This document shows positions 47,938 through 63,770 of a stretch of 64,000 nt of DNA, piece by piece. The notes under the pieces were generated by a model that saw nothing but the letters and a program-made list of their open reading frames with translations, ran no database searches and was not told where the DNA came from. The stretch is from Salinivirgaceae bacterium (lineage in GTDB: Bacteria; Bacteroidota; Bacteroidia; Bacteroidales; SZUA-534): assembly GCA_017557605.1 (NCBI GenBank), contig JAFYYJ010000005.1:1-64000 (forward strand), read 5' to 3'. Numbering within the stretch: the stretch's first letter is position 1; every line of letters begins with the position of its first letter. A program made the translations under genes and the position numbers.

Positions 47938-48978
47938 TTACAAATGTCTCACCAAATCCTTCGCCTTCTGATACTCCTGAGGATTACCAATATCTATCCA
48001 CGTGCCGTTTAGCGGATAACGGATAACCTTTTTATCGTCCAAAATCAACTTTTCTATCAAATCCGTCGCATTAAAAAACTGATTATCAGGAATCTCATTC
48101 AACGCACGGCGTTTGATGAGGTATATGCCAGCGTTGGCGTAATAATTGTATTGCGGCTTTTCCAACAGACCTTTGATGTCGCGTCCTTCCAAATCCAAAA
48201 TGCCGTATGGTATTGATATATTGTACGGCACAGCAGCAACTGACATTTCTGCGTCGTTCGACTTAAAATGAAGATAAAAATCCTCATAATCAATATTAGT
48301 GAATAGATCACTGTTCATTACCAAAATGGTGTCGTTATAGAATGTATCCACAAATTTCACAGAACCTATCGTGCCAAGGAATTTTGGCTCTCGGAAACAA
48401 TTGACCTTAATACTGTCGCGGGGAGCGGAAAAATGCTCCTCAATCTGTTCTTTCAAATAATTGACTGTAACAGATATATGCTTGATTCCATATGAAATCA
48501 GACGGTCAATGTTATGGTCGATTATAGATTTATCTCCTACAGGGAGTAACGGCTTCGGAGTTTTTTCTGTAAGAGGACGAAGTCTTTCTCCCTTACCTCC
48601 AGCCATCAATACTGCATCAATCGGTAGTCTTGTTTTATATTTATAGAGGTCAATGATATCTACAATGTGCATATTATCATCAAGAACAGGAACGAGTTTC
48701 ATTTGCAACTCTTTTTGCCGCTTGATTTTCTCTACATTGTCAATATCATTTAATGACATATACTTGAATTGTCGGTGCATTACTTTTTCTGTCTTATCGT
48801 TGACGGAAGCACCGGCAATCAACGCCCGTCTTGAATCTCCATCTGTAAGAGTTCCAACCATACAATTATTGTCATCAACGACAAAAAGTACCATAGGACC
48901 TTCTTGAATAGCGTTAATTTGCATTAACGCTTTCAGAAGTGTCTTATCTTGATGGATTATATGTGTTTGAATTACCAT
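47938..48978 (-). CDS. PtmE-like CBS-nucleotidyltransferase (GlcN/GlcNAc-1-P guanylyltransferase)
   Basis: A 346-residue protein with two CBS domains (about 1-115, FVVDDNNCMVGTLTDGDSRRAL) and a sugar-1-phosphate nucleotidyltransferase domain (about 122-346). The latter has LMAGGKGERLRPLTEKTPKPLLPVGDK, VNYLKEQIEEHF, and a C-terminal GTWIDIGNP. This is the domain order of Campylobacter PtmE, which makes the GDP-activated glucosamine used for legionaminic acid. In this locus it would supply GDP-sugar to LegB. GTP versus other NTP use is inferred from the context. It starts 5 bases after the amidotransferase stop. Confidence 0.82.
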   Translation of the reverse strand: MVIQTHIIHQDKTLLKALMQINAIQEGPMVLFVVDDNNCMVGTLTDGDSRRALIAGASVNDKTEKVMHRQFKYMSLNDIDNVEKIKRQKELQMKLVPVLDDNMHIVDIIDLYKYKTRLPIDAVLMAGGKGERLRPLTEKTPKPLLPVGDKSIIDHNIDRLISYGIKHISVTVNYLKEQIEEHFSAPRDSIKVNCFREPKFLGTIGSVKFVDTFYNDTILVMNSDLFTNIDYEDFYLHFKSNDAEMSVAAVPYNISIPYGILDLEGRDIKGLLEKPQYNYYANAGIYLIKRRALNEIPDNQFFNATDLIEKLILDDKKVIRYPLNGTWIDIGNPQEYQKAKDLVRHL

Positions 48979-48983
48979 TCAGA

Positions 48984-50096
48984 TTATCTTTCGACTTTTT
49001 TAAGAACCCATTTATCCAATGAGTTCTTTTCAAACAAGTCTGTATTATAAAGATTGTCCATTATCTTCCAAAATTCACGTTCTGAATAACCTAGGAACTC
49101 ACAAAACTCACGAACAGAACGTGGATCAAGATTACCATCATGCGCATCAATAAGTTTGAATCCTTCTTCACGCGATATCATACCATATCTTACCATACGA
49201 GACGCATAGTCTGTAGCAGATGCATGTCCAAATTTTGGATACTTTAACCATGAATGTACCAAATATGCCGGTGTATCAACCTGATCAAATTGTTCCACAT
49301 GATGTGTTCGAATCCATTCGTGAGTCAGGTCATGGAAACCAAATTTCTTTGCAAGTTCGTAGTTCTTGAAACTATTCCATGGTGTAAAATAACTTATGTA
49401 GATAGGATCTAGTTTGGCGAGTTCCTCTTGTGAAGGGGGGGCGAAAAAATTAAGATCTTTCTTACTAATGCCACAAGCCTCAATAATCTCTTCATCTGGA
49501 ATACCGCTTCCAACGCCATTATTAATCTGATCTCGTGCGGAATATGTTTCAATACCATCTACACCACCATATTCCCAGCCCACATTTTCACCATAAACTA
49601 ACAGGGGTGTATTAAATTTCAATGCCATCCAGAGAGGATATGTATAAATATAACGATCTACAAAATATGTCGGTTTTCCATATTTTTCAAAAGTATATTT
49701 CATAACCTTTTTTTGTGCCTTAATATTCGGATTAAGAATTACCAAATCACAACCAAAAGCTTCTGAAATATTTTTAATATTATGTTTACCTGCTTCCGTC
49801 ATAGGAAAGTTATCCGCGGCAGAAACCAAAAGTGGATTCATGTGCATAACTTCTTTCATCAAGTAAGTTTGGAAATGAGAATCCTTACCGCCACTGACTG
49901 CAATCATACAATCATAACCATTGGGTCCATTCATTCCGCGATATTTGGCACAAATAGTTTCAAACTCCTTCCAACGAGCATTCCAGTCTACTTTTGCTCG
50001 ATGTTCATAACTGCGACATGCGGAACATACGCCTTCTTCATCAAACTTGATACCGGGTCGTGTATCCGGCATACAACACTTTTTGCAATACTTCAT
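48984..50096 (-). CDS. PseA/WbpG-type N-acetyl sugar amidotransferase
   Basis: A 370-residue ATP-pyrophosphatase-fold enzyme. An N-terminal zinc-type knuckle (Cys4, Cys7, then Cys24, Cys27) is followed by the PP-loop SGGKDS at 68-73. ENVGWEYGG and SWLKYPKFGHASATDYASR are conserved in the family. PseA, WbpG and Campylobacter PtmG convert an N-acetyl group on a sugar to acetamidino, using ammonia from a glutaminase subunit in WbpG's case. Its place beside the legionaminic genes suggests an acetamidino-legionaminic derivative. No hisH/hisF-type glutaminase gene is in the window. Confidence 0.88.
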   Translation of the reverse strand: MKYCKKCCMPDTRPGIKFDEEGVCSACRSYEHRAKVDWNARWKEFETICAKYRGMNGPNGYDCMIAVSGGKDSHFQTYLMKEVMHMNPLLVSAADNFPMTEAGKHNIKNISEAFGCDLVILNPNIKAQKKVMKYTFEKYGKPTYFVDRYIYTYPLWMALKFNTPLLVYGENVGWEYGGVDGIETYSARDQINNGVGSGIPDEEIIEACGISKKDLNFFAPPSQEELAKLDPIYISYFTPWNSFKNYELAKKFGFHDLTHEWIRTHHVEQFDQVDTPAYLVHSWLKYPKFGHASATDYASRMVRYGMISREEGFKLIDAHDGNLDPRSVREFCEFLGYSEREFWKIMDNLYNTDLFEKNSLDKWVLKKVER

Positions 50097-50127
50097 ACAA
50101 TAAAATATTAAAGATTTGTATTTATAA

Positions 50128-50814
50128 CTATTTTTTTTCTCTCGTTATCATTTCTGCCATTTTCCAATCCCACATTGTATCTAAATCGAAGGACGACAAA
50201 TCATCCATTACATATTTTATCCTTTTTTGCATTTTGTGCATATGAGTTGTTTTCAATACTGAAGCGTTCATTACATAAATGGCTCCATTATATTCATACA
50301 CTTTTGGTGCATCTTGCCTTCTAAAGATATTGCCATCACCTTTGCAAATATTCAGAAATCCTTCTCGATTTTCTTCGAAAACACAATAATAAGGGTTAGC
50401 TGCACATTCCTTAACAGAGACAACCATGTCAACATCTTTCCTATAAAGTTCTAATGCTTCTTTCACCTGTTGTGGTGTACGGAACGGAGATGTGTTTTGT
50501 AAAAGAACAACTCTATCATAATAAACACCTTTTTTCTCATAGAAATCGAGTGCGTGAAGTAACACTTCGTAAGTGCCCGCAGCATCTGTTGCCAATTCTG
50601 CAGGGCGCACAAAAGGTACTTGAAGCCCGTATTGTTCAACAACAGAGATAATCTCTGCATCATCTGTCGACACACAAATATCAACGTCTGAACATATTGC
50701 TCGGGCACAATCTATCGTATAATAAATCAGCGGCTTCCCATCAAACAACTTAATGTTTTTTCTGGGAATACCTTTGCTGCCGCCCCTTGCAGGTATGATT
50801 ACAAGTGTATTCAT
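50128..50814 (-). CDS. CMP-nonulosonate cytidylyltransferase (LegF/NeuA-like)
   Basis: A 228-residue cytidylyltransferase. Signature IIPARGGSKGIPRKNIK at residues 6-22, VSTDDAEI, PFVRPAELATD and QNTSPFRTPQQV. It activates the nonulosonic acid as CMP-sugar; sequence alone does not separate sialic from legionaminic substrates, but the LegB and LegC genes beside it argue for legionaminic acid. Its ATG overlaps the LegG stop by four bases. Confidence 0.9.
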   Translation of the reverse strand: MNTLVIIPARGGSKGIPRKNIKLFDGKPLIYYTIDCARAICSDVDICVSTDDAEIISVVEQYGLQVPFVRPAELATDAAGTYEVLLHALDFYEKKGVYYDRVVLLQNTSPFRTPQQVKEALELYRKDVDMVVSVKECAANPYYCVFEENREGFLNICKGDGNIFRRQDAPKVYEYNGAIYVMNASVLKTTHMHKMQKRIKYVMDDLSSFDLDTMWDWKMAEMITREKK

Positions 50815-51971
50815 ATATCGTAAAAATGTTTTTTCACAAGATTATCCAACGGATATTTTGCAATGACGTCGAATATGTTTTGCAATGTGTCTGCCTTTTC
50901 GTATGGATTTTTGGCGGTGGCGGCTGCGTGTCTGAAATCATTTGACAATGCTTTTTGCAGTCCTGACTTTATGTCCTCGAATGTTGCCGCTACATCAACA
51001 ACGCTTTCGCCTCGGGCGCGTCCTTTCTGACGGTCGCCGATGTTCAATGTCGGAATCCCAAACGACGGTGCCTCCACCAATCCGCTCGACGAATTGCCGA
51101 TTACTGCCGTGGCATATCTCAACGCCGAATAATAGCGTTTTTTGCCTAACGAGGTTACTGCCAACGCCTTGCCAGCGTGTTTGTTGACATAATCTTTCAC
51201 TTTTGCAACAATTATCCGGCCGTCGGTATCGGAATTTGGCAGCGTAAACAGCAACTGATATTCATCGTTGATTTCCTCCAACGCCTTCAACAAGTAGTCG
51301 CACTGAACCGCCGCCGTGGAATTTTCCATCGTGACGGGGTGGAATGTTATCAGCAAAAACTTTTTGCCAAGGCTGAAATCCAAACTTTGTTCGAGTTCTA
51401 AGAGCGGCATTGCGGCTTCGTTCCTTATATTGTCAACGCCAAGCGAACCCACATAAAACACTCTGTCAGGCTGTTCGCCCATTTGAATAATGCGTTTGCG
51501 GTATTCTTCGGTGCTTGTGAAATGCAGGCAACTCATTTTGGTGATTGCGTGGCGTATCGAATCGTCGTATGCGCCCTCGGTGATTTCGCCGCCGTAAAGG
51601 TGCGCCACCGGTATTTTGTAAATCAGGCACGACTGCGCCGCCGCCAACATCTCATAGCGGTCGCCAAGAATCACAGCCAAATCAGGTTTCAAATCCTCCA
51701 AGGCGTCGGCGAAACCAATCGTCGCCAATCCCATAGATTTCAACGTGCCGTTAGCGGTGTCGGACGAGAGAAGCATCTCCACTTTCTTGTTGATTGCAAA
51801 ACCGTCCGCCTCTATCTCCTTGTATGTCAATCCGAACTCTGGCGAGAGGTGCATATTGGTGGCAACTATTTGAATCTCCAAATCTTGCGACGCCTTCACC
51901 ATCTGCATCAGGCGGCTCATAATGCCGTATTCTGCGCGTGTTCCTGTAAAAAAACAGATTCTGCGTTTCAT
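50811..51971 (-). CDS. Hydrolysing UDP/GDP-sugar 2-epimerase (LegG/NeuC-like)
   Basis: A 386-residue protein from the ATG at 51971, where MKRRICFFTGTRAEYG begins; the longer frame overlaps legI and has no homology. Landmarks are TGTRAEYG, ILGDRYEMLAAA, HLYGGEITEGAYDDSIRHAITKMS, GNSSSGLVEAPSFGIPTLNIGDRQKGR. It releases the nucleotide and inverts C2 of the amino sugar, giving the mannosamine-type precursor. The choice of LegG rests on context. It overlaps legI by four bases. Confidence 0.9.
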   Translation of the reverse strand: MKRRICFFTGTRAEYGIMSRLMQMVKASQDLEIQIVATNMHLSPEFGLTYKEIEADGFAINKKVEMLLSSDTANGTLKSMGLATIGFADALEDLKPDLAVILGDRYEMLAAAQSCLIYKIPVAHLYGGEITEGAYDDSIRHAITKMSCLHFTSTEEYRKRIIQMGEQPDRVFYVGSLGVDNIRNEAAMPLLELEQSLDFSLGKKFLLITFHPVTMENSTAAVQCDYLLKALEEINDEYQLLFTLPNSDTDGRIIVAKVKDYVNKHAGKALAVTSLGKKRYYSALRYATAVIGNSSSGLVEAPSFGIPTLNIGDRQKGRARGESVVDVAATFEDIKSGLQKALSNDFRHAAATAKNPYEKADTLQNIFDVIAKYPLDNLVKKHFYDI

Positions 51972-52978
51972 AATTCGATGAGTTCGTCTGTTGCGAAATC
52001 GCGTTTTGCCTTCTGTCCCAAAACCTCCTCCCAACGCATCGGCGAAATGCCGTCGCTGGGACGTTTTACGGTGAGGTTTTCGGTGGTGAAAATGTCGCCT
52101 TGCTTGATGTTTGAAGCGGCAACAATGCTTTTGCGGGCGATTGCGATGTTTTTGCGCTCCGATTCCGAAACTGTCTTATGCCCGGAGCCGAGAGCAAGTT
52201 CAATGTTTCTGATTGCCGAAACCATTGCTTTGAGTTCGTGCGGTTCGAGCGACGCCTTGTGGTCGGGTCCCTCCATATTTCGGTCGAGGGTGAAATGTTT
52301 TTCGATGATTTCTGCGCCCAACGCCACCGCCGCAATCGGAACTTCGATGCCGTTTGTGTGGTCGGAATAACCAACACGCACTCCAAAACGCTCTTTCAAC
52401 TCGTTCATTGCCAAAAGGTTGACATCCTTGAACGGTGTAGGATATTCTGTATTGCAATGCAATATTGATATTTTGTCCTTGCTCAATCCGTTGTCCATCA
52501 ACACCTTCAACGCCGCGCTGATATCTTCAATTTCGCACATTCCCGTCGAAAGTATCACCGGCTCGCCAAACTGTGCAATCTTTTTCAGATACGGATAGTT
52601 TGTGATTTCGCCAGAGGGAATTTTCCAAAGTCCGATATTTATTGAATGAAGATAATCAATGCTTTCAAAGTCAAAAGCCGTGGAGAAGAACTTGATATTT
52701 TTTTTGTTGCAATATTCAATTAATTGATTGTGGTCGGAATCTGACAACTCCAACTTTTTAAGCATTGACAATTGACTGTCATTGTCAGAATTATTAAGAT
52801 TTTTCTTTTGGTAATCGGCTTGTTTTGCGGACTTTGAAACCAATTTTTCTGATTTAAAAGTCTGAAACTTAATAATATCGACACCTGCTTCAACGGCTTT
52901 GTCTATCAATTGCTTGGCAATTTCGATTGACCCATTGTGATTGACACCTGCCTCTGCAATTATCAAAACGTGCTTCAT
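51968..52978 (-). CDS. Legionaminic/N-acetylneuraminic acid synthase (LegI/NeuB-like)
   Basis: A 336-residue NeuB family enzyme: TIM barrel (1-270) with AEAGVNHNGSIEIAKQLID, IKFQTFKSEKLV, WKIPSGEITNYPYLKKIA, VGYSDHT and IIEKHFTLDRNMEGPDHKASLEP, then a C-terminal SAF antifreeze-like domain (280-336). It condenses the hexosamine with phosphoenolpyruvate. The PSGEITN stretch is more like legionaminate than sialate synthases as I recall them, which agrees with the neighbouring legB and legC. Cytosolic. Confidence 0.92.
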   Translation of the reverse strand: MKHVLIIAEAGVNHNGSIEIAKQLIDKAVEAGVDIIKFQTFKSEKLVSKSAKQADYQKKNLNNSDNDSQLSMLKKLELSDSDHNQLIEYCNKKNIKFFSTAFDFESIDYLHSINIGLWKIPSGEITNYPYLKKIAQFGEPVILSTGMCEIEDISAALKVLMDNGLSKDKISILHCNTEYPTPFKDVNLLAMNELKERFGVRVGYSDHTNGIEVPIAAVALGAEIIEKHFTLDRNMEGPDHKASLEPHELKAMVSAIRNIELALGSGHKTVSESERKNIAIARKSIVAASNIKQGDIFTTENLTVKRPSDGISPMRWEEVLGQKAKRDFATDELIEL

Positions 52979-53610
52979 TTCTCTTTAATTTTCAAAATGG
53001 CAGGATTGCCAGAATATAATCCTTTGACCTTGATTGATTTTCTCACAAAAGAACCAGCCCCAACAATAATGTCATCATTTATTGTAATGCAATTAGACAG
53101 TACTGATTGACTACCAATAAAGCAATTATTCCCCACGTCACATTCACCGTTTACCATCGTTCCTGTCGAAACGTGACAGAAATCGCCAATCTTCACATCG
53201 TGCTCGATATTTGCCAAAGTATTTATTATACAATTACTACCGACACAAGCCCCAGCATTTACAAAAGCTTTATGCATAACCACTGTTCCTTCACCTATGG
53301 TTGCGTATTTGCTTACATAGGCATCGGAAGCAATGATAGTTGCCAATTTTCCTCCTACATTTTGTACTAATTGTGCAAGTTTATGACGCAAAGTTGATGA
53401 CTTGATTTGCCCTACTGTAATCACAAACTCCGCCTTATCCACATACTGTGGAATATCATCATCTACACCAATAACTTTATAATCTAACACCCGTGTGCCA
53501 ACCAATTCTGGCTTGTCCAAAATTCCCAATATAGTATATCCAGCACTTTCTGCAACATCTATTACAGACTTGCAATGTCCGCCGCCACCAATGAGGATGA
53601 GATGTTTCAT
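52975..53610 (-). CDS. NeuD/PglD-type acetyltransferase (LegH-like)
   Basis: A 211-residue protein. The N-terminal Rossmann part (1-75) begins LILIGGGGHCKSVIDVAE; the C-terminal left-handed beta-helix is made of hexapeptide repeats (ATIGEGTVVMHKAFVNAGACVG, IGDFCHVSTGTMVNG). PglD and LegH of this type N-acetylate the 4-amino group made by LegC; NeuD of this type may O-acetylate instead. The cluster makes the LegH role likely. It overlaps both neighbours by four bases. Confidence 0.85.
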   Translation of the reverse strand: MKHLILIGGGGHCKSVIDVAESAGYTILGILDKPELVGTRVLDYKVIGVDDDIPQYVDKAEFVITVGQIKSSTLRHKLAQLVQNVGGKLATIIASDAYVSKYATIGEGTVVMHKAFVNAGACVGSNCIINTLANIEHDVKIGDFCHVSTGTMVNGECDVGNNCFIGSQSVLSNCITINDDIIVGAGSFVRKSIKVKGLYSGNPAILKIKEK

Positions 53611-54602
53611 TTTTGTTTTTCGCCTAATAGTTTTTGTAAGACATTATGCATCACAATACCACCTATAATACTTAAAACGAACATCAACATCATCCAAGAA
53701 ATGAGTCTAAACACGCCTGAATGAATAAAAGATAAACGATATATAGGAAGCATAACAAAGACCATCATTTGTATCAAATATATTTCATAAGAACTTTTGG
53801 CAATTTTTTCTATAAAAAAAGACAGTTTACTCTTGTTAATACTTCTATAAACATACCAAAGAGCATACGTTAACAAAGTTGGAAGGTAGAAATAACAAAT
53901 CCATCTATGAGTCGCCCATCCTGAATTATAAAACAAAGGTTCTAAATCCACCTTCCAAAAACTAAAAAAAACTACAGCTATAATACTTAATATTGATAGC
54001 AAAACATTTCTAACATTTAGTATTACTCCTTCATTAACCCAAATTAAAGCTAATGGAATTAAAAATAAATATCTAATTGCCAACAATCTATATAAGACAT
54101 CCGGCAGATTAATTAAAGAAAAACAACACTCACACCCGACACTAAAGAAAAGGAACAGCCATGTCAGCTGTCTTCGTGTAAGCTTTTGAACCAAAGGATA
54201 CATTAACACAAGGATAATCGCCACTTGTATGTATATCCAAAAATAATAAGAACCAGGGCCATAACCTCCATACACAACACTGCTGATTAACACATCATAT
54301 GCTGATTGACCAGAAAACCAAAGCCTATACAATAATATAATAATTTGAATTATTACAAAAGGCACCACAATCCTTTTCAATAAAGGTGTCCATTTTATTG
54401 TAGGTTTTGTTCCTCTCTTATATGCATGAAATACTTGTATTAGAATAAACATTGGCACTTGCATATCGGCCCATACTTGAAACAAGCAATAGTTCCATAA
54501 TGAAGACGGAAAGCAATGTGCAATTACCACGCATATAATTGCATAGGCTTTCAAAAAGTCTATAAATGTATCGTATCCTGTTTTATTAAATACTAATCGC
54601 AT
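53607..54602 (-). CDS. Acyltransferase-3 family membrane protein
   Basis: A 331-residue protein with about ten membrane helices and the acyltransferase-3 (OafA/NodX-type) start FLKAYAIICVVIAHCFPSS, in which the His is likely catalytic. The C-terminal half has KIAKSSYEIYLIQMMVF. It is probably an O-acetyltransferase that decorates the glycan on the periplasmic side of the inner membrane. It is strikingly more AT-rich than the leg genes on both sides, suggesting a separate origin. The ATG at 54602 is a plausible start because hydrophobic segments begin at once. Confidence 0.85.
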   Translation of the reverse strand: MRLVFNKTGYDTFIDFLKAYAIICVVIAHCFPSSLWNYCLFQVWADMQVPMFILIQVFHAYKRGTKPTIKWTPLLKRIVVPFVIIQIIILLYRLWFSGQSAYDVLISSVVYGGYGPGSYYFWIYIQVAIILVLMYPLVQKLTRRQLTWLFLFFSVGCECCFSLINLPDVLYRLLAIRYLFLIPLALIWVNEGVILNVRNVLLSILSIIAVVFFSFWKVDLEPLFYNSGWATHRWICYFYLPTLLTYALWYVYRSINKSKLSFFIEKIAKSSYEIYLIQMMVFVMLPIYRLSFIHSGVFRLISWMMLMFVLSIIGGIVMHNVLQKLLGEKQK

Positions 54603-54681
54603 TTTTTATTTATATGACGAATCTAGCTTGGTTAAGCCTCTCTTGTCTGCAATTATTCGTATTCTCTATGCCATTATATTC

Positions 54682-55827
54682 TCATATCTTCACACTGCTC
54701 GGTATGTTCACAACCCTGTCGGCGAAATAAATCGTATTCTCCAAGCCGTCGTTTTCGCAGTTTTCAAACATCGGCAGACGGTTCATCAACTCCCAAATCG
54801 GGCGGGTCATTATACCGTTGTCGTTGCTGAATTGCAGGAACTCTTGCTGCATATCCTTGTCTTTCAGGATTATTGCGTTGAGCCAATAATTGCTGCGGCA
54901 ACCGTCGGGTTCACTGAAAAACTCCACGTCGGGAACATTCTTGAAAAATTCCTTGTACGCCGCTGCGGTCTGACGTTTGCTTTCGATGTATTTGTCAATA
55001 TTCTCCAATTGTGCGCAACCGAGGGCGGCATTGATGTTTGGCATACGGTAATTGTAGCCGATGTGGTCGTGTCGGAACTCCCAACGGTGCGGAATTTTTG
55101 CCTGCGTGGTGATGTGCTTGGCATACGCACCGAGTTTTTCGTCATTGAAAAGCATCATTCCGCCGCCGCCAGTAGTGATGGTCTTGTTGCCATTGAAACT
55201 CAACGCCCCTATCTTGCCGAATGTGCCTGTGTGTTTGCCCTTGTAAAGACTTCCAATACTCTCGGCGGCATCTTCAACGAGTTCAATATGATATTCGTTG
55301 CATACAGCCACCAATTCGTCCAAATGGACGGGATGTCCGAAAGTGTGCATCGGGACACACGCTTTTACGCGACGCTGTGTATTCTTGTTAAAACATTGAT
55401 TGTCTTTGATTTCAGCGTTCTTTTCGAGCCAATTTCTTACTGCCGCCGGCGAAAGTCCCATTGTATCCCTGTCAACATCAATGAAGACGGGAACAGCACC
55501 GATGTAACTCAAAGCGTTGCAGGTAGCAATGAAAGTCAGGGCTTGTGTCAAAACCTCGTCGCCGCGCTCCACGCCCGCCAACATCAGCGAAATGTGCAGC
55601 GCATTAGTGCCGCTCACGCAGACAACCGCCCTTTTGCAGCCCGTAAACCTTGCAATGTCTTCTTCAAATCTGTCAACGAACTTGCCTACGCTCGACACAA
55701 AAGTAGTGTCGATACATTCGTTGAGATATTTTTTCTCGTTACCCGCAAACACCGGCACCGACAGCGGGATGAAGTCGCCGCCGCCATACCATTCGCGGAT
55801 AAAGTCAGTTATTATTTTGAATTCCAT
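54682..55827 (-). CDS. LegC-type PLP aminotransferase
   Basis: A 381-residue DegT/DnrJ/EryC1 fold enzyme. The PLP lysine lies in ALSFNGNKTITTGGGGMML; other landmarks are VSSVGKFVDRFEEDIARFTG, GTNALHISLMLAG, FIDVDRDTMGL and HTFGHPVHLDEL. LegC family proteins carry an N-terminal extension like residues 1-25 here. It transaminates the 4-keto-6-deoxy sugar made by LegB to the 4-amino sugar. It starts 2 bases from the end of legB. Confidence 0.93.
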   Translation of the reverse strand: MEFKIITDFIREWYGGGDFIPLSVPVFAGNEKKYLNECIDTTFVSSVGKFVDRFEEDIARFTGCKRAVVCVSGTNALHISLMLAGVERGDEVLTQALTFIATCNALSYIGAVPVFIDVDRDTMGLSPAAVRNWLEKNAEIKDNQCFNKNTQRRVKACVPMHTFGHPVHLDELVAVCNEYHIELVEDAAESIGSLYKGKHTGTFGKIGALSFNGNKTITTGGGGMMLFNDEKLGAYAKHITTQAKIPHRWEFRHDHIGYNYRMPNINAALGCAQLENIDKYIESKRQTAAAYKEFFKNVPDVEFFSEPDGCRSNYWLNAIILKDKDMQQEFLQFSNDNGIMTRPIWELMNRLPMFENCENDGLENTIYFADRVVNIPSSVKI

Positions 55828-55829
55828 TT

Positions 55830-57038
55830 TTACATTTTTTGGTCGAGGTTCTTACCCTTTTCCTCGTGTTGGAAATTGGGAATAAAACCTTTTATTGCGT
55901 CAACAACCTGACCTTTGGTAAAATCGGGTTTGCTGAAAATGTTTTCTAATTCTGTGAAGAAACTGTCAACTTCATTCATTGGACGACGTGTGGTTTCCTC
56001 AACGACGCCGAGTGCCGAAAACCTCTGCATATTGATTTTTTCGCCCGGAACATAAAATTCCTCGTAAGCCTTTTCGCCAGTGGTGTCGCTTTTGAAATAT
56101 ACAACAGGGTATTTGTCGGAATCGTATGACATTTGGTCGGCATATTCCTTGGCGGCGTTATCATTCTGACATTCAATCTTTTGAAAGCCTTGTGCCTTTA
56201 CGAAGTCATCGCAAACCGACGAGAAAGTCAGCATTTGGTCTTCGCCGAGTTTTGGGAAGAACACTTCCCCACCTTTGCCAAGAATGCACGCCAACATACA
56301 TATTTGACCGCTTTCTTCGGGCGAAACGAAATATCTTTTTACGTCGTTTGGCGCGGCGAGAGGCTGTTTCTTTTGCAAACGGTGAATCCAACCGTCGGGC
56401 AACGAACCATTGGAGAAAGCGACGTTGGCAAACCTTGCCGTAGTTACCTTGAAATGAACGTTGTACGCCATCACCAAATCTTCCATAATTCGTTTGCTTG
56501 CGCCCATAATGTTGACGGGGTTTGCAGCCTTGTCGGTGGACACGCAGAAAAAATGTTTCGGCGGATACACGCAAAGCAAATCCATCAGTTTCTTAGCCTT
56601 GATGTCGTTGTTTTCGATGAGAGCCTGAACGGAGTATTTGTCTTTTTCGCTTCTGACGTGCTTGTGTGCCGAAAAATTGGCGACAATATCAAAACCTTTT
56701 TCTTCTCTGAAAATCCTCTCAAAAATCGGGTCGGCAAAATTCAGAGTGTAACACCTAAATTCGTCGGGACAAAACAGCCCCTTCGTAGAACGCACGTCCC
56801 TGACAAGTTCCGCCAAGCCGTTTTCATTCAAATCGACAACGACCATACTCTTGGGTTCAAACCTCAGCACCGCCTTTATGAAAGACGACCCGATAGAACC
56901 CGCACCGCCGATAACGCAAACTTTTTTGTCCTTGATTTCACGGCTCAAAGCATCTTTATTAGCCTCAATATCAGGCAAAAACATACTTTGACTGCGAAAC
57001 GTTACGCTATCAGAAATGAATTTGGAAAGATTGAACAT
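55830..57038 (-). CDS. LegB-type nucleotide-GlcNAc 4,6-dehydratase
   Basis: A 402-residue soluble short-chain dehydrogenase-type protein related to CapD/FlaA1. NAD site VIGGAGSIGSS (42-52), VVVDLNEN, NFSAHKHVRSEKD, STDKAANPVNIMGASKR with the Met/Lys replacing the classic Tyr-Lys pair, and FFPKLGEDQ. Residues 1-35 and the C-terminal 60 are LegB-like extensions. It starts the legionaminic route by removing C6 oxygen and oxidising C4; with PtmE upstream in metabolism, the substrate is likely GDP-GlcNAc rather than UDP-GlcNAc, but this is inferred. Confidence 0.9.
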   Translation of the reverse strand: MFNLSKFISDSVTFRSQSMFLPDIEANKDALSREIKDKKVCVIGGAGSIGSSFIKAVLRFEPKSMVVVDLNENGLAELVRDVRSTKGLFCPDEFRCYTLNFADPIFERIFREEKGFDIVANFSAHKHVRSEKDKYSVQALIENNDIKAKKLMDLLCVYPPKHFFCVSTDKAANPVNIMGASKRIMEDLVMAYNVHFKVTTARFANVAFSNGSLPDGWIHRLQKKQPLAAPNDVKRYFVSPEESGQICMLACILGKGGEVFFPKLGEDQMLTFSSVCDDFVKAQGFQKIECQNDNAAKEYADQMSYDSDKYPVVYFKSDTTGEKAYEEFYVPGEKINMQRFSALGVVEETTRRPMNEVDSFFTELENIFSKPDFTKGQVVDAIKGFIPNFQHEEKGKNLDQKM

Positions 57039-57134: not shown

Positions 57135-58532
57135 TTATGACCGACTACGTAAAACTCCCATTAACCTTTCTTTGTTCTTATAAAGGAAAAACATCGAACT
57201 TCCTCCAAGAATAACTAACACTATAATTCTTGCATTGGTAAATTCATATAACAATAGCGACAAAACCGAAAATACACCAGAAACCACAACCATCATAATA
57301 ATAAATTTTGTGCTATAACAATGATGCATTCTTAAGCGAAATACCAAAATATAATGCAAAATTAACAAAATAAAATAACAACACATTGTTGTATAGGCCG
57401 CAGCTATATAGCCATATTGGGGAATAAAAATGCTATTTAAAAGTACATTCGTTGCAGCAGTCAAAGCCGTGCATATAGCCATACCTAATGTTTTCTTTTC
57501 ATATTGTTCTATATTAACATAGAGACTATACAAAAACACAAAAATACACCCCTGAATTACTGGTGGGATTACGTATTTAGCGCCAATATACTTTTCACCT
57601 CCTAGTACATATAAAATCTCTGGTGCAAAAAGCATAAAACATATAGATATCAAAACAAAAATACTTACATAAGGTTTAGAATGCTTTTTTATTTCTTCAT
57701 AATCTTTATTATTAAGTCTTTCACCTAACCATGGTGAAAAGGCCGTATTCATCGCCGTCCATATAGCACTAACAATAAATGCAACATTATACGCCATACT
57801 ATAGTATGCCGTATCATTTGCACTGCATATTTTAGTAATCATGGTTCTGTCTGAACTATTTAAAATAGTAGCTGATAACATATGAAATATGAATGGTATG
57901 CACATGGGGATAGAATACTTAATATACTGTAGTTTTCCCCCCCCTCCTTTTCTGATAAAATGTCCATACAGAATAACCGCAATCACTATTGAAGGTATTT
58001 GCCCACCTATTATTCTAGCTAACGCATTATCTTCAAGAATCCAAATAAAGAGAAAAGAAAATAATACGTTGGATACCGCAAGTACTATACTTAATAAAGC
58101 TACTATCTTATACTTGTATCTAAATTGTTCAATTTGGATAAACATATCATATGCAGGATGAACCAACGTGGTAATACACATAATGACAATGCATTTTTTA
58201 TCTAAAACGAACAGTTCGGACCAAAATGAATTTGACAATAATAGAACAGTTAGTAATAATGTGACACTCGAGCCCAAAAAGAGATTTGTTTTCACATACG
58301 AGTTTAATTCATTTTCATAATCAAATCTGGCTCTAATCAAAGATGCAGACAAGCATAGAGAACCAATTACAGTTACTATGGCAAGCCATGCATTAAAATT
58401 ATTAACTATTCCATATTCCTCGATTGATAGTATTCGTGAAAAGACAGGTGTTGTTAAAAATCCTATTCCCTTTAGAATAAAGCTACTTAGCGTATACCAT
58501 ATTGTTGCTTTTAGTACTTTATTTGTTCTCAT
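57135..58532 (-). CDS. wzx: Wzx-type polysaccharide flippase
   Basis: A 465-residue protein with about 12-14 membrane helices across the whole length. The MATE/Wzx-like start ATIWYTLSSFILKGIGFLTTPVFSRILS.EEYG is typical of the PST family. It should flip lipid-linked glycan repeat units to the periplasm. It is very AT-rich. Its start codon lies within the end of the MptE-like gene (14-base overlap). Confidence 0.9.
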   Translation of the reverse strand: MRTNKVLKATIWYTLSSFILKGIGFLTTPVFSRILSIEEYGIVNNFNAWLAIVTVIGSLCLSASLIRARFDYENELNSYVKTNLFLGSSVTLLLTVLLLSNSFWSELFVLDKKCIVIMCITTLVHPAYDMFIQIEQFRYKYKIVALLSIVLAVSNVLFSFLFIWILEDNALARIIGGQIPSIVIAVILYGHFIRKGGGGKLQYIKYSIPMCIPFIFHMLSATILNSSDRTMITKICSANDTAYYSMAYNVAFIVSAIWTAMNTAFSPWLGERLNNKDYEEIKKHSKPYVSIFVLISICFMLFAPEILYVLGGEKYIGAKYVIPPVIQGCIFVFLYSLYVNIEQYEKKTLGMAICTALTAATNVLLNSIFIPQYGYIAAAYTTMCCYFILLILHYILVFRLRMHHCYSTKFIIMMVVVSGVFSVLSLLLYEFTNARIIVLVILGGSSMFFLYKNKERLMGVLRSRS

Positions 58533-59427
58533 TTATATTTCCTCTCAAGACCTTTTCCAGTTGCATTTTGTTTACACTATCAATTAATGTATTAGGGGTC
58601 AAATTTTGAAGAATAATTTTATTTTTATTACAATAATCTGAAATCAATTCATATCTTCTAAATACCATCGCTTGATCTTCAAACAAATGACTGATACCTT
58701 CTGCCAATATCCATTTCCCCCAGCTTTTTTTTTCGTCATCTGTATCTTTATAACAATGGTCATCATTTGTTTCTCCAGTCATAATTAAATTTATGAACGG
58801 CAAAATGCCTGTTTCTTCACAGCCCAAGAGATTGATTTCATCAAATCCCATATATATAGCTATCGCTATAGCATACTGTATTACTTTATTAAACGCAGGC
58901 ATAATTTTATCTATTTGAATACGGCCTATACTTTTATAATGATTATACCCATGTAAATACCTTACATTAATATTCTTATCAATACCTTTTTTTTTTATTT
59001 CATTTGCATTTCTATACGGAACAAACAATATCAAATCCCTATATTGATATAGTTTCTTTATCTTATTAAGATAATAATCTTTTTCCAATCCACTATTGTC
59101 ATTTGATCGGAAAATAGCGTCATCTACCATCACATGAAAATTTGAATTCAATTCACTAAATTTTTCATGTTCCATAAGCATATTAACAGTAAAGACATAT
59201 TCATCTTTTAACATTCTAAAATCTAACTGATTAAGCGATGGCCCATTACCTAAAATAAAGCATCTCTTACCTTTATATATATTGTTTAATTCTAAATTTG
59301 CTTTTATATAATTCGGCTGTCGCGTAATCAAACGATAGCAGTATGAACGAAAATTAAGAATAATTCTCCAAGATAAATCTGAAGTATCTTTTCTATCTAA
59401 ATATTTGTTTATTATACTATTTATCAT
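58519..59427 (-). CDS. MptE/DUF115/sialyltransferase-like protein, possible nonulosonate transferase
   Basis: A 302-residue soluble protein. The best landmark is GKRCFILGNGPSLNQLDF followed by RMLKDEYVFTVN (53-82), a nucleotide-sugar-binding start shared by CST-type (GT42) sialyltransferases, Maf flagellin glycosyltransferases and MptE-like DUF115 proteins. No transmembrane helix is seen. In a locus that makes a CMP-nonulosonic acid, a transferase for that sugar is required, and no other gene here fits one. The call is tentative. The gene is AT-rich and overlaps both neighbours (14 and 11 bases). Confidence 0.6.
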   Translation of the reverse strand: MINSIINKYLDRKDTSDLSWRIILNFRSYCYRLITRQPNYIKANLELNNIYKGKRCFILGNGPSLNQLDFRMLKDEYVFTVNMLMEHEKFSELNSNFHVMVDDAIFRSNDNSGLEKDYYLNKIKKLYQYRDLILFVPYRNANEIKKKGIDKNINVRYLHGYNHYKSIGRIQIDKIMPAFNKVIQYAIAIAIYMGFDEINLLGCEETGILPFINLIMTGETNDDHCYKDTDDEKKSWGKWILAEGISHLFEDQAMVFRRYELISDYCNKNKIILQNLTPNTLIDSVNKMQLEKVLRGNINENK

Positions 59428-60337
59428 TTTTTCTCTCTATTTTTTTAAACTCGTCATAATTTCTTATATAATCATCAGGCTTATAGAAATCCGATGCTGC
59501 AACGCAGAGAACCGAGTCCTTTTGTAACCACAACATCTCTCTCCAAGTACACTGGTCAATCACAACTCCGATGCTCGGGTCCGAAAGTTCAATCTCTTCT
59601 CTTCCATTTTTGTTCTCAAGAATCAACTGTATCCGTCCATATGGGCAGAACAAAAGCTGTTTCAGTTCCTTGTGAGCATGAAATCCACGTCTAACGCCTT
59701 CTGGCACTTTAGAAATATAGTATATACGTTTGATTTCAAACGACACTTCGTGTGTGGCTTCAAAGAATGAGAGTTCACCTGCATCAACCGTTGGGATAGT
59801 CTTGATATGAATAACCTTACACCCTGCAACGTTTTCTGGAACTTTAATCTCATCGCCTTTGAGTACTGAATACCACTTAAGGTTATCAATGCCTTTGTAT
59901 CTTTCCAACAATTCCTCTGGAATATCAATCACTTCATGAAAATTGTGCTTATCATAGAAACGAATAGCACGTTCATTCTCTCTTGAAACACACCAATAAA
60001 CACTATCAAGATTTAGCTCATTAAATGCCTTATCAATAATAGCTTCCATTCCGAACCATGAGTAGCCCTTACTCATAGCTTCTTTCCGAACTGTTATTGC
60101 AAACTCAGCATTTCCATCTTTAATGTTCTTGAGACTCACCGTTCCCATATATTCATCAGTATCAGATGCAATAGCCAAATGAATATTCGTTTCAGATATG
60201 CTTGATGCTATGAACGACTTACAATCTTCAATTGTTTTACTGGCAAAGTTTCCACGAAGCTTTCCTACCACACTCTCGTCGTGCATCCATGCAAGCATTA
60301 AAGGTGCGTCTTCAATTCTCAACTCTCGTAAATACAT
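59417..60337 (-). CDS. GNAT acetyltransferase fused to an FdtA/QdtA-type ketoisomerase
   Basis: A 306-residue fusion. Residues 1-165 are a GNAT N-acetyltransferase (LRELRIEDAPLMLAWMHDE, YMGTVSLKNIKDGNAEFAI, ISRENERAIRFYDKHNF-like CVSRENERAIRFYDKHNF). Residues 175-300 are a cupin of the WxcM/FdtA type (FEIKRIYYISKVPEGVRRGFHAHKELKQLLF, GVVIDQCTWREM). It should isomerise dTDP-4-keto-6-deoxyglucose to the 3-keto sugar and, after the neighbouring aminotransferase, N-acylate the 3-amino group. The first and third steps thus sit in one protein. It is followed by an 11-base overlap into the MptE-like gene. Confidence 0.85.
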   Translation of the reverse strand: MYLRELRIEDAPLMLAWMHDESVVGKLRGNFASKTIEDCKSFIASSISETNIHLAIASDTDEYMGTVSLKNIKDGNAEFAITVRKEAMSKGYSWFGMEAIIDKAFNELNLDSVYWCVSRENERAIRFYDKHNFHEVIDIPEELLERYKGIDNLKWYSVLKGDEIKVPENVAGCKVIHIKTIPTVDAGELSFFEATHEVSFEIKRIYYISKVPEGVRRGFHAHKELKQLLFCPYGRIQLILENKNGREEIELSDPSIGVVIDQCTWREMLWLQKDSVLCVAASDFYKPDDYIRNYDEFKKIERKNDK

Positions 60338-60352
60338 GACAAACGTCTCTCA

Positions 60353-61447
60353 TTAAAACTCATTAATCGAATCGATTACGTACTGTATTTCTTCGTCAGT
60401 CATTCCAAAATACATCGGAATACTTAGTTCTGTTGCACTGATCTCCTCTGCGATAGGAAGCGCACCCTTTGGAATATTCATATCCTTGTAGCAATCCTGC
60501 AAATGAATTGGAATAGGATAATGCTTGTTCGTTCCGATACCTTTATCATTCAGATGCTTTTCAAGAGCATCTCTTTCTTTGCAACGAATGCCATAGATAT
60601 GCCATACAGGGACTGAATAGTCTGGGACAAACGGTGTAATCACCTTTGGGTTTCTGATGCCTTCCGTATACAACTGAGCAATCCGTCTGCGTTCCACATT
60701 CATCTTATCAAGATGAGGAAGCTTTGCGACTAAGAACGCAGCCTGAAGTTCATCAAGTCTGCTGTTATTACCTTTGTATATATGGTGATACTTATAATCG
60801 GATCCGTAGTTACCCAAGGCACGAATCTTATCAGCCAACTCTTTATTATTAGTCACAGTAGCACCAGCATCACCAAGAGCGCCAAGGTTCTTGCCTGGAT
60901 AGAAACTGAATCCTGCTGCGTCGCCGAATGTGCCGACCTTCTTTCCCTTATAAGTTGCGCCATGAGCCTGAGCACAGTCTTCTACAACCTTAAGTCCATG
61001 TTTATTCGCTATGCTCATTATCAAATCCATATCGCAGGCTTGACCATAAAGATGGACGGGCATGATGGCTTTAGTGTGTTCATTCACTGCCGCATCTATC
61101 AGCTCTGGGTTAATATTGAACGTTCTGATATCTGGCTCGACAAAAACAGGTGTTGCTCCAACATATGTAACAGCTAGAGCCGTGGCAATATATGTGTTTG
61201 ATGGAACTATGACTTCATCTCCTTCACCTATTCCGAGTGCTTTCAAAGCAAGCATAAGAGCATCCAAGCCATTTCCTACACCCACACAGTATTTAACTCC
61301 ACAATACTCTGCAAACGCCCTTTCAAACGCCTCATCCTCTTCACCTTCGATATACCAAGAGCGTGTGAACACACGGTCAAATGCTTCACGAATGTCACTA
61401 TTTAGTTCTTTCTCCATCGGGAGAAATGTTACAAATGGGATTTTCAT
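60353..61447 (-). CDS. dTDP-3-keto-sugar aminotransferase (FdtB/QdtB-like)
   Basis: A 364-residue DegT/DnrJ/EryC1-family aminotransferase. PLP lysine in [79 protein letters not shown]. The sequence style matches FdtB/QdtB, which place an amino group on C3 of the dTDP-3-keto-6-deoxyhexose. The adjacent FdtA-type cupin supports this. dTDP-glucose synthesis genes (rmlA, rmlB) must be outside the window. It overlaps the GT2 gene by four bases. Confidence 0.9.
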
Positions 61448-62433
61448 TTTCCAAGATTATTATCACAGATAATTTTTTTGATTATTGATACGTCTCTTTT
61501 CTTATAGTATTTTCTTTTTATGACATAATAGATATAGAATAACGTCTCTGGAAAATAAACAATGTCTATTGCGACTTTTTGTTTCTTGCTCCTTGCAAAT
61601 AGTCTTTTATTTATACGATACAATCTTCTTCTGTTTACTAATGATAAACTGTCAAGATGTTCCAGTTTTTCATCTCTAGCAAACAACAATTCATCTTCTT
61701 GCAGTTTTGGGTGTTTATTCTTAAACTTCCTTGCAGAAGAAACTCCTCCGTTCTCATACCATATTGAAATAATATCATAAGCAAATTCCAATTTTCCTAT
61801 CATCAAGTATTTTGCAAGAAATGGTCCATCTTCCCATAGCAAGTATCTCTCGTCAAAATATCCGATCCTTTCCAAAATACTCCTTGAAAAACACATCGCG
61901 CTTCCGGATGCCATATCATAAAATGCGGATGTAATAAAAGCACTATACTGCTTAATACTAGAATCAAATCTCTGGATTACTTTCCTTTCTGCATAATGTG
62001 GCAATAAATATAATGGTGTATATGAGCCGCGATACACCATCCTCGATGTCACTATAACATCTCTCTTTGTAGTAATAAATCGGTTGACAATGCGAGATAC
62101 TATGTTATTATCAAAAAAAACGTCTCCGCATGATAAATTGATAACGTAGTTTCCTTTTGATTTCTTATAAGCACTGTTTAAATTTTTGACAGTTCCAATA
62201 TTTAATTCATGTTGGACAATAAACCATTGAACGTTGGAGTTGGCTCTTTTTCTCAAAAACGCACGGACATCTTCGAACGGGAAAAAATCTGATCCATCGT
62301 CAGTTATGATATATTCAATGTTAGGATAATCTTGATTCACAACTGAATTAATTGTATCATACAGTCTTTCAAATCTCTGATAAGAAGCTGTTATAATACT
62401 AACAAGTGGCAGCTCACTTTTACTAGTTTGCAT
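61444..62433 (-). CDS. Family 2 glycosyltransferase
   Basis: A 329-residue GT-A fold protein. N-terminal [29 protein letters not shown] and [23 protein letters not shown] near residue 105 takes the place of the DXD metal site. Residues 270-329 are basic and may bind the membrane. No transmembrane helix. It adds one sugar to the growing repeat unit; donor and acceptor are unknown. Confidence 0.85.
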
Positions 62434-62483: not shown

Positions 62484-63770
62484 CTATACTCTTGTTGTGT
62501 TTTTGTATGAACAAAAGGCGACTATTGGTGTGCCAAATATGATAAAATTTCCACCAGGATTCTCCAAACCACTTATTTTTAACAAGTACACAAATAGTAA
62601 CATCGGCAATAAAACCAGCATCGTCCTTTCAGTTTTTCCATGTATTCTATTCCAAAAAAACAAAAAATAACTTATAATAGCACTAAATAAAACCAATGTG
62701 CCTAATAACCCATATCTCCAAATACATTGAACATATCCGGAATCTATTCCTGCAATTCCAATTTTATTAGGGTCAAGGCCTGCGCCAAAAAGAAAATTAG
62801 CTGGAAATTGTAAATCTGCTTGAAAAATCTCTGTATATACACCCGCGGATCCATCCCCCTTAAATAATAAATCCAATGTTTGTGTTATTCCCCTGGACGC
62901 CCATTGTAATGTGTGTTCCGGAATAAATCGTGATATACAGATAAATAGCAAAAAAACAAATATTGCTCCATTTACATACTTCCTCATATTTTGTAAATTA
63001 AGCCGCGTCAATATGATAATGAGAATACCCATGAATGAAAGTATCAACCCTGTTCTGGTATTAAGTAGAGGCATTATTATCATAACAAGCGATAACGTTG
63101 TCAATTTTTTATTTTTATCTGAAATACCTTTTAAAAAAGATAATACTATTATTAAAGCTGTAACATATCCAAATCCATCCATTAAGTTGCTGGCAAACCC
63201 ATAGCTTCTAAGATATAAATATCTATTAACTGCTTCCGCTAATCTTTCTGATCTTACATTCTTTGTAATTGTATCAACGAATATCATTCTAATTGAAGGG
63301 AATTGCAGCGAAACAAGAACAAGCACAAGCTGTATCATTCCTGCTAAAGCAATTGCTATAAGAAAACGATTTAATGTCAAACCATAATAATTACATAGCA
63401 TCGCTAAAAATATACAAGCAATAGTAGTATGGATTATTATCAATGTATGTTGTTTAGTGAATTCTGCAATTTCTAATTGATGAGATATATCTGATATATA
63501 ATGTGCTCCCTGAAAAATATAGAAAAGAATAATATGAATACCAAATCCAAGAATCGCACACAGCAGTTCCCTTTTTAAAATAACTTTTTGTCTTTTAACA
63601 CATTGGAGTATAATAAATACAACATTGAAAACCGTAATTAGACTAAGAATACTGATGCTAGCTACTGGAGGGAGAAATAAATAAAAAAAACAGTATGCCG
63701 TCAAAAATGGCATTGGTATTTTTCCACATTTTCTCTTATTGGTTAGTGAGTCTAATTGAGCAGTATACAT
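62484..63770 (-). CDS. Wzy-like O-antigen polymerase
   Basis: A 428-residue protein with about ten to eleven membrane helices. A run of short loops with one larger periplasmic loop (about 290-345, SRFIPEHTLQWASRGIT ... GAGLDPNKIGIAGIDSGYV) is typical of Wzy. The sequence is poorly conserved, as usual for this family, so the call comes from topology and position between glycosyltransferase genes. It is very AT-rich. The locus also encodes a ligase-like protein at its other end. Confidence 0.7.
   Translation of the reverse strand: MYTAQLDSLTNKRKCGKIPMPFLTAYCFFYLFLPPVASISILSLITVFNVVFIILQCVKRQKVILKRELLCAILGFGIHIILFYIFQGAHYISDISHQLEIAEFTKQHTLIIIHTTIACIFLAMLCNYYGLTLNRFLIAIALAGMIQLVLVLVSLQFPSIRMIFVDTITKNVRSERLAEAVNRYLYLRSYGFASNLMDGFGYVTALIIVLSFLKGISDKNKKLTTLSLVMIIMPLLNTRTGLILSFMGILIIILTRLNLQNMRKYVNGAIFVFLLFICISRFIPEHTLQWASRGITQTLDLLFKGDGSAGVYTEIFQADLQFPANFLFGAGLDPNKIGIAGIDSGYVQCIWRYGLLGTLVLFSAIISYFLFFWNRIHGKTERTMLVLLPMLLFVYLLKISGLENPGGNFIIFGTPIVAFCSYKNTTRV

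What the first reader, a model, noticed from the sequence alone, without database searches (positions are those of the whole stretch)
58519..59427. Candidate nonulosonate transferase related to MptE/Maf/GT42 proteins
Seen: the GNGPSLNQLDF motif with downstream VFTVN in a soluble protein next to wzx and the leg genes. Known: this start is shared by GT42 sialyltransferases and Maf-type glycosyltransferases that move Pse or Leg sugars. Inferred: it moves the CMP-legionaminic acid made by the same locus. It would be a transferase class rarely tied to Bacteroidota capsules.
Basis: partly seen in the sequence, partly recalled or inferred. Interest (0 to 1): 0.58.

Follow-up and report, generated by a model that had tools for sequence, protein, structure and literature searches.

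The report
Sialic-acid-like sugar transferase in capsule locus
This gene most likely makes the enzyme that attaches legionaminic acid, a bacterial look-alike of our sialic acid, to a gut-type bacterium's surface sugar coat, and it belongs to a widespread but mislabelled enzyme group that seems to follow the genes for this class of sugar acids.

Summary
The ORF is real (302 aa; overlaps both operon neighbours). Its AlphaFold model (pLDDT 88.8) matches Maf (Z 14.7), MptE pterin kinase (12.4) and GT42 sialyltransferases Cst-I/II (about 12). By sequence profile it leans to GT42 (Cst-II E 1.6e-8 over ~160 residues) rather than MptE (2e-3 over 39 residues), and its genome has an ordinary FolK. Relatives sit beside CMP-sugar synthetase genes (PF02348): 15 of 19 places in 16 genomes, against 3 of 67 Wzx and 3 of 45 initiating-transferase genes. 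Among 393 Bacteroidales genomes, 54 of 61 with the family carry NeuB, against 76 of 332 without. The legionaminate-transferase reading is therefore well supported as inference. Two corrections: the family is not rare in Bacteroidota, and it is not confined to nonulosonates. Close relatives sit beside complete Kdo pathways and beside an uncharacterised aldolase-plus-cytidylyltransferase cassette, so 'CMP-ulosonate transferase' is the better name. The own locus also holds a second NeuB just outside the window, so the exact donor is open. The general idea has precedents (Maf; E. coli K15 ORF4). No enzyme activity was tested.

The parts
58519..59427 (-). candidate CMP-ulosonate (legionaminate) transferase, MptE-like/GT42-like, 302 aa; G60-L65 loop, N82, D102, H224
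57135..58532 (-). Wzx flippase (PF01943), start overlaps the candidate's stop
59417..60337 (-). GNAT + FdtA (WxcM-like) fusion; dTDP-3-amino-sugar branch, stop overlaps the candidate's start
60353..61447 (-). DegT-family sugar aminotransferase
61444..62433 (-). GT2 glycosyltransferase
62484..63770 (-). polytopic-looking protein, possibly a polymerase (Wzy); by eye, no Pfam match
55830..57038 (-). LegB-like nucleotide-sugar dehydratase (PF02719)
54682..55827 (-). LegC aminotransferase (TIGR04181, 562.9 bits over cut-off 420)
53607..54602 (-). membrane acyltransferase, PF01757
52975..53610 (-). NeuD/PglD-type acetyltransferase (TIGR03570 over cut-off)
51968..52978 (-). LegI/NeuB-type nonulosonate synthase (TIGR03569 over cut-off)
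50811..52034 (-). LegG/NeuC-type epimerase (TIGR03568 over cut-off; true start probably inside this ORF)
50128..50814 (-). CMP-nonulosonate synthetase (PF02348), the only one on this contig
48984..50096 (-). N-acetyl sugar amidotransferase (WbuX/PseA type, TIGR03573 over cut-off)
47938..48978 (-). nucleotidyltransferase PF00483, PtmE-like by its N-terminal region (name recalled)
45961..47835 (-). large polytopic-looking protein, possibly a ligase or polymerase (by eye; no Pfam match)

Best explanation
The gene encodes a cytoplasmic glycosyltransferase of the GT42/Maf/MptE fold that takes a CMP-activated ulosonic acid, here most likely the legionaminic acid derivative made by the genes 47938-57038. 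It transfers the sugar to the lipid-linked oligosaccharide begun by the PF02397 initiating transferase of the same locus (L031:12778-13419, window coordinate about 72778-73419). The adjacent Wzx would then flip the finished unit. By analogy with GT42 (recalled, not tested) the reaction would be metal-independent, the GNGPSL loop and N82 would hold CMP, and H224 (H in 82 of 108 rows) would be the candidate general base. Shown here: fold, profile kinship and genomic coupling to CMP-ulosonate synthesis. Inferred: activity, donor, acceptor, linkage and catalytic residues.
For: Model pLDDT 88.8, pTM 0.88; VIA Z 14.7 Maf, 12.1 CstII, 11.9 Cst-I, 11.1 P. multocida sialyltransferase, about 10 human GT29 enzymes; Foldseek best hit CstII 5.6e-6. 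Family profile to CstII E 1.6e-8, 1.8e-7, 3.7e-6. PF02348 within 10 kb of 15 of 19 family places in 16 genomes, against 3 of 67 Wzx and 3 of 45 initiating transferases lying away from family members. In 80 loci fetched by sequence pattern alone, 64 by a local model plus L056 by Pfam have a CMP-synthetase within 10 kb, 63 of those 64 on the same strand, and all 64 plus the window's match PF02348. 22 of 67 loci with a cassette gene have it immediately next to the homolog, 12.1 expected for another ORF of the same locus, p 0.001. Bacteroidales: NeuB in 54 of 61 genomes with the family against 76 of 332 without, Fisher 9e-23; with the query protein alone 39 of 46 against 91 of 347, 1.5e-14. The locus codes LegB, C, I, G, a CMP-synthetase and an amidotransferase, and this is the only family member in the genome.
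Against: No activity data. The query scores below Pfam's cut-off for MptE-like (29.6 against 34.6 bits) and does not hit PF06002. Residue 181, T/N/S in 103 of 108 rows, is K here only. The putative catalytic His is Y in 21 of 108 rows, and close relatives L061, L062 and L065 have Y there. Fold scores alone do not separate it from MptE. A second NeuB (L031:9706-10743) means the donor need not be CMP-Leg. 9 of 40 Bacteroidota loci show neither a CMP-synthetase nor NeuB in the DNA fetched, and 26 of 62 Bacteroidales family members have no listed NeuB within 10 kb. Four loci with full or nearly full flanks (L071, L076, L099, L130) of the 80 have no cassette gene found.
Confidence: 0.8

Rival explanations
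1. It is a CMP-ulosonate transferase, but its donor is the product of the second NeuB-type synthase of the locus (L031:9706-10743), with legionaminate moved by another enzyme such as the unassigned L031:3891-5000.
For: The second NeuB is real (PF03102 5e-79; over cut-off). The candidate's clade has mixed neighbours (NeuB, KdsA, HMGL), so donor choice is not fixed by descent. L031:3891-5000 has no Pfam or PHROG match.
Against: Only one PF02348 synthetase lies on the contig, and it sits with the leg genes. The candidate lies 5.6 kb from LegI and 10.5 kb from the second NeuB.
Confidence: 0.12
2. It is an MptE-type 6-hydroxymethylpterin diphosphokinase, as the Pfam name says.
For: Pfam MptE-like 7.3e-7; M. 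jannaschii HPPK 8sd5 Z 12.4.
Against: Profile similarity to MptE is confined to 24-45 residues at the nucleotide loop. The own genome carries a standard FolK, PF01288 1.5e-35. No neighbour in the operon was recognised as a folate gene.
Confidence: 0.03
3. It is a glycosyltransferase of the locus that uses an ordinary nucleoside-diphosphate sugar; its link to CMP genes only reflects shared loci.
For: It sits among many sugar genes; several relatives lie in loci without any CMP-synthetase found.
Against: Wzx and initiating-transferase controls in the same genomes are far less often near PF02348. In L062 the homolog is the only gene that by eye could be a glycosyltransferase near two cytidylyltransferases and an aldolase.
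Confidence: 0.05

Closest known systems
Maf flagellin glycosyltransferases (central domain pfam01973, e.g. 5mu5; C. jejuni Maf4; C. botulinum Maf)
   Same: Best fold match (Z 14.7 to residues 261-514 of 5mu5). Published to move Leg/Pse, and CbMaf also Neu5Ac and Kdo (PMC11339370 passages; PMC9298399 passages).
   Different: Stand-alone domain of 302 aa, no Maf N- or C-terminal domains; sits in a Wzx polysaccharide operon, not with flagellin; sequence kinship to Maf is weak (E 1e-4 to 0.8).
GT42 sialyltransferases Cst-I/Cst-II, P. multocida 9c08
   Same: Same fold and best profile match; CMP-sialate donors; GNGPSL and FxxN stretch aligned by hhalign.
   Different: Query does not hit PF06002; only 3 of 63 family members do; about 20% identity.
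E. coli K15 capsule ORF4, predicted alpha-Kdo transferase
   Same: Capsule-locus protein assigned by fold recognition to Maf and CstII and predicted to move a CMP-ulosonate (PMC7387560 passages).
   Different: Predicted for Kdo in a transporter-dependent capsule; its sequence was not compared with ours.
T. forsythia GtfS / TFUB4_00887 nonulosonate transferases
   Same: Bacteroidales enzymes shown by knock-out to add Pse/Leg derivatives (PMC6388019 passages).
   Different: 442-445 aa with a DXD motif, protein O-glycan; lengths and motifs as published differ from ours; not compared by sequence here.
MptE archaeal HPPK (8sd5)
   Same: Fold (Z 12.4).
   Different: Sequence similarity only at the loop; different genomic setting.

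Membership tests
CMP-ulosonate transferases as a working class (GT42/GT29/Maf fold) | sialyltransferase-type alpha/beta fold | tested here: met
CMP-ulosonate transferases as a working class (GT42/GT29/Maf fold) | genomic coupling to CMP-ulosonate synthesis above controls | tested here: met
CMP-ulosonate transferases as a working class (GT42/GT29/Maf fold) | transfer from a CMP-sugar donor | not testable with these tools
   needs enzyme assay
GT42 (Cst-I/II) | match to the family model PF06002 | tested here: not met
   (query, E up to 1: MptE-like only); 3 of 63 relatives match
GT42 (Cst-I/II) | catalytic His and CMP-binding Asn residues (recalled: H188, N31, N51) | tested here: inconclusive
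   N82 aligns with N31; H224 and D102 are conserved but their match to H188 and N51 is by eye only
Maf | central pfam01973 domain fold | tested here: met
   Z 14.7, 205 residues, rmsd 4.0
Maf | N- and C-terminal extra domains, flagellar setting | tested here: not met
   302 aa, aligned to 261-514 of 5mu5; polysaccharide operon
Pfam PF01973 MptE-like | score over the curated cut-off | tested here: not met
   29.6 against 34.6 bits; all 63 members of A2, the query included, match at E<=0.01
MptE pterin kinase | full-domain sequence similarity to MptE | tested here: not met
   only 24-45 residues at E 0.0024-0.066
MptE pterin kinase | pterin pyrophosphokinase activity | not testable with these tools
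   FolK present in genome makes it unneeded

The most novel reading that the evidence does not exclude
Stand-alone 'MptE-like' proteins of surface-polysaccharide loci form one broad, donor-switching superfamily of CMP-ulosonate transferases (legionaminate, pseudaminate, Kdo and others) across Bacteroidota, Bacillota, Spirochaetota and beyond. One recurrent cassette (a 4-hydroxy-2-oxovalerate-aldolase-like PF00682 enzyme plus a PF02348 cytidylyltransferase plus this transferase; the aldolase is in 17 of 80 loci) then marks an undescribed CMP-activated ulosonic acid. The aldolase's own C-terminal domain resembles the transferase family.
Probability: 0.5. Interest if true: 0.72.

Novelty: new variant of a known kind. 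Interest (0 to 1): 0.52.

Why it matters
Many nonulosonate-containing bacterial polysaccharides lack an assigned transferase (general knowledge). This family offers a testable one, in 61 of 393 Bacteroidales genomes examined. Its public label (pterin kinase) is already being taken at face value: PMC12102941 reads a Campylobacter coli MptE-like gene as folate metabolism (passage seen; that protein was not compared here). If the reading holds, a gene of this family next to a CMP-synthetase can be used to find new ulosonic acids.

Tried and rejected
NCBIfam and PHROGs gave no family for the candidate. Single-sequence PDB searches were uninformative (best E 0.16, a sialyltransferase; none; for L031:3891-5000 none useful). 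hhalign against a single CstII sequence aligned only about 50 residues, so the catalytic His could not be placed by alignment. No coordinates were available for a residue-level structural alignment. A KdsC model built locally drifted onto the cytidylyltransferases and was ignored. The fold search with the aldolase model was filled by its aldolase domain and says nothing on the C-terminal domain. Viral contigs: 37 loci with distant relatives were fetched but not analysed.

Rows dropped before counts: the 22 rows became 19 places (two pieces in G785:C19 merged; G787:C61:77-283 and the weak G782:C74 row dropped). Only matches over the Pfam cut-off were used: 45 of 49 PF02348 rows; 77 Wzx rows, those under the cut-off dropped; PF02397 51 of 53 (two out-of-frame pieces in G000 dropped). 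For NeuB only the 19 long matches of 28 rows were used. In the tree labels, L172 was typed as 'none' although one search shows a CMP-synthetase; the three-state count is not affected. In one search the reading frame picked for L165 is probably not the homolog's. In one search only the 150 NeuB places printed were used for distances. The four family places without a PF02348 neighbour (G782:C76, G787:C61, G792:C30, G795:C101) lie near contig ends or, for the last, start at base 179 of the contig.

Full report
What is there. The ORF at 58519-59427 (-) is intact, 302 aa, and carries GNGPSL and VFTVN as described. It overlaps its neighbours, so it is part of one operon. The GC of this gene is 27.6%, the lowest of the locus genes measured, against 47% for window 1-45000. 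The operon holds LegC, LegI, LegG and NeuD-type enzymes and an amidotransferase over NCBIfam cut-offs, a LegB-like dehydratase and a PF02348 CMP-synthetase, Wzx, GT2 and two large polytopic-looking proteins (by eye, no Pfam match). It runs on past the window (L031) to an initiating transferase PF02397, a NusG-like gene and a second NeuB. The product was not determined; the amidotransferase suggests an amidino-legionaminate (inference).

Fold and kinship. With 63 sequences from the window and the search for related loci, AlphaFold gave pLDDT 88.8 and pTM 0.88. VIA ranks Maf first (Z 14.7, 205 residues), then MptE/HPPK (12.4), CstII (12.1), Cst-I (11.9), the P. multocida sialyltransferase (11.1) and human GT29 sialyltransferases (about 10). 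Rows differing by under 1 are tied, so fold alone does not tell transferase from kinase. Sequence profiles do lean: CstII-type chains reach 3.7e-6 with the 15-row close set, 1.8e-7 with 63 rows and 1.6e-8 with 45 rows. MptE reached 0.0024 at best, over 24-45 residues. The genome has a normal FolK.

Distribution. In 393 Bacteroidales genomes the query protein matches in 46 and the family profile in 61. In 395 genomes of the phylum the query matches in 19. It has no match in the two congeners listed. The closest relatives (30-40% identity) are in rumen-type Bacillota, a Treponema, Selenomonadaceae, Flavobacteriaceae and a Patescibacteria genome, which with the low GC suggests horizontal transfer (inference).

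Genomic coupling. In the 16 genomes of the window and its closest relatives, 15 of 19 family places have PF02348 within 10 kb. Controls away from family members: 3 of 67 Wzx places and 3 of 45 initiating transferases (Fisher 1e-10 and 2e-8). PF01943 also takes in non-capsule flippases, so the Wzx control is diluted; PF02397 is the stricter one. NeuB itself is near only 6 of 19. In the 80 pattern-fetched loci, 64 carry a PF02348 gene by the local model, all verified by Pfam, and L056 one more by Pfam. NeuB models hit 24 loci, KdsA 10 and PF00682 aldolase 17; all 17 aldolases match PF00682. L061 has Kdo-8-P synthase, KpsF/KdsD-type isomerase and KdsC-type phosphatase, each over an NCBIfam cut-off, and L073 Kdo-8-P synthase and phosphatase. 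L064, L066, L067 and L068 have pseudaminate synthases over cut-off. Thus the shared partner is CMP activation of a 2-keto-3-deoxy acid, and the sugar varies. On the tree the query sits in an 11-row clade (SH-aLRT 97) with NeuB, KdsA and aldolase neighbours, and the three synthase types change at least 15 times over 66 rows. Of 40 Bacteroidota loci, 29 have a CMP-synthetase, 2 more NeuB alone and 9 neither.

Mechanism. A CMP-legionaminate transferase acting on the lipid-linked unit before Wzx is the simplest reading. N82 matches CstII N31 by alignment (the residue number is recalled); D102 and H224 are proposed by conservation only. K181 is odd for the family. The second NeuB leaves the donor open.

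Prior knowledge. Maf proteins with this domain are held to move Leg, and C. botulinum Maf also Neu5Ac and Kdo (PMC11339370 and PMC9298399, passages read). E. coli K15 ORF4 was predicted an alpha-Kdo transferase from Maf and CstII fold matches (PMC7387560, passages). T. forsythia uses a 445-aa transferase described with other motifs (PMC6388019, passages). A search for PF01973, pfam01973, MptE-like or DUF115 found 20 papers, none of which, by title and abstract start, treats stand-alone MptE-like proteins as polysaccharide transferases (passages of PMC4000134, PMC3219624 and PMC12102941 were read; PMC4000134 labels a Clostridium DUF115 fusion 'glycosyltransferase' in a table of a sugar gene cluster). 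Other searches. Subscription journals and preprints are not covered.

Noticed in passing
L031:5058-10743 (window coordinate about 65058-70743): LuxC acyl reductase, LuxE, a thioesterase and an AMP-ligase next to a second NeuB, a PglD-type acetyltransferase and a FabG-like SDR, with no second CMP-synthetase on the contig: perhaps an acyl or aldehyde precursor for an unusual second ulosonic acid.
   Followed up: partly
L057:10796-13037, L058:7041-9280, L062:8211-9933, L126:10677-12932 and 13 further loci: Recurrent 4-hydroxy-2-oxovalerate-aldolase-like PF00682 enzyme, in most cases beside PF02348 cytidylyltransferases and an MptE-like transferase: an undescribed CMP-ulosonate pathway.
   Followed up: partly
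L057:12498-13037, L058:8738-9280, L126:12393-12932: The C-terminal domain of these aldolases matches the transferase family profile (hhalign probability 95, E 2e-8 for one comparison) with a GPGKS-like loop: possibly a degenerate second transferase-fold domain.
   Followed up: partly
L061, L073, L116, L131, L124: Kdo-8-phosphate synthase genes next to MptE-like proteins in Bacilli, Lachnospiraceae and Clostridiales records, hinting at Kdo in Gram-positive surface polymers (L124 and L131 by local model only).
   Followed up: partly
L071, L075, L077, L079, L081, L099: MptE-like domains inside very large proteins (850-2000 aa) of mostly Alphaproteobacteria and a Gammaproteobacterium, sometimes two per protein.
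   Followed up: no
L175-L211: 37 viral contigs carry distant relatives of the transferase.
   Followed up: no
L031:3891-5000: 369-aa protein without Pfam, PHROG or useful PDB match between the polymerase-like gene and the Lux cassette; by eye perhaps a GT-B transferase.
   Followed up: partly
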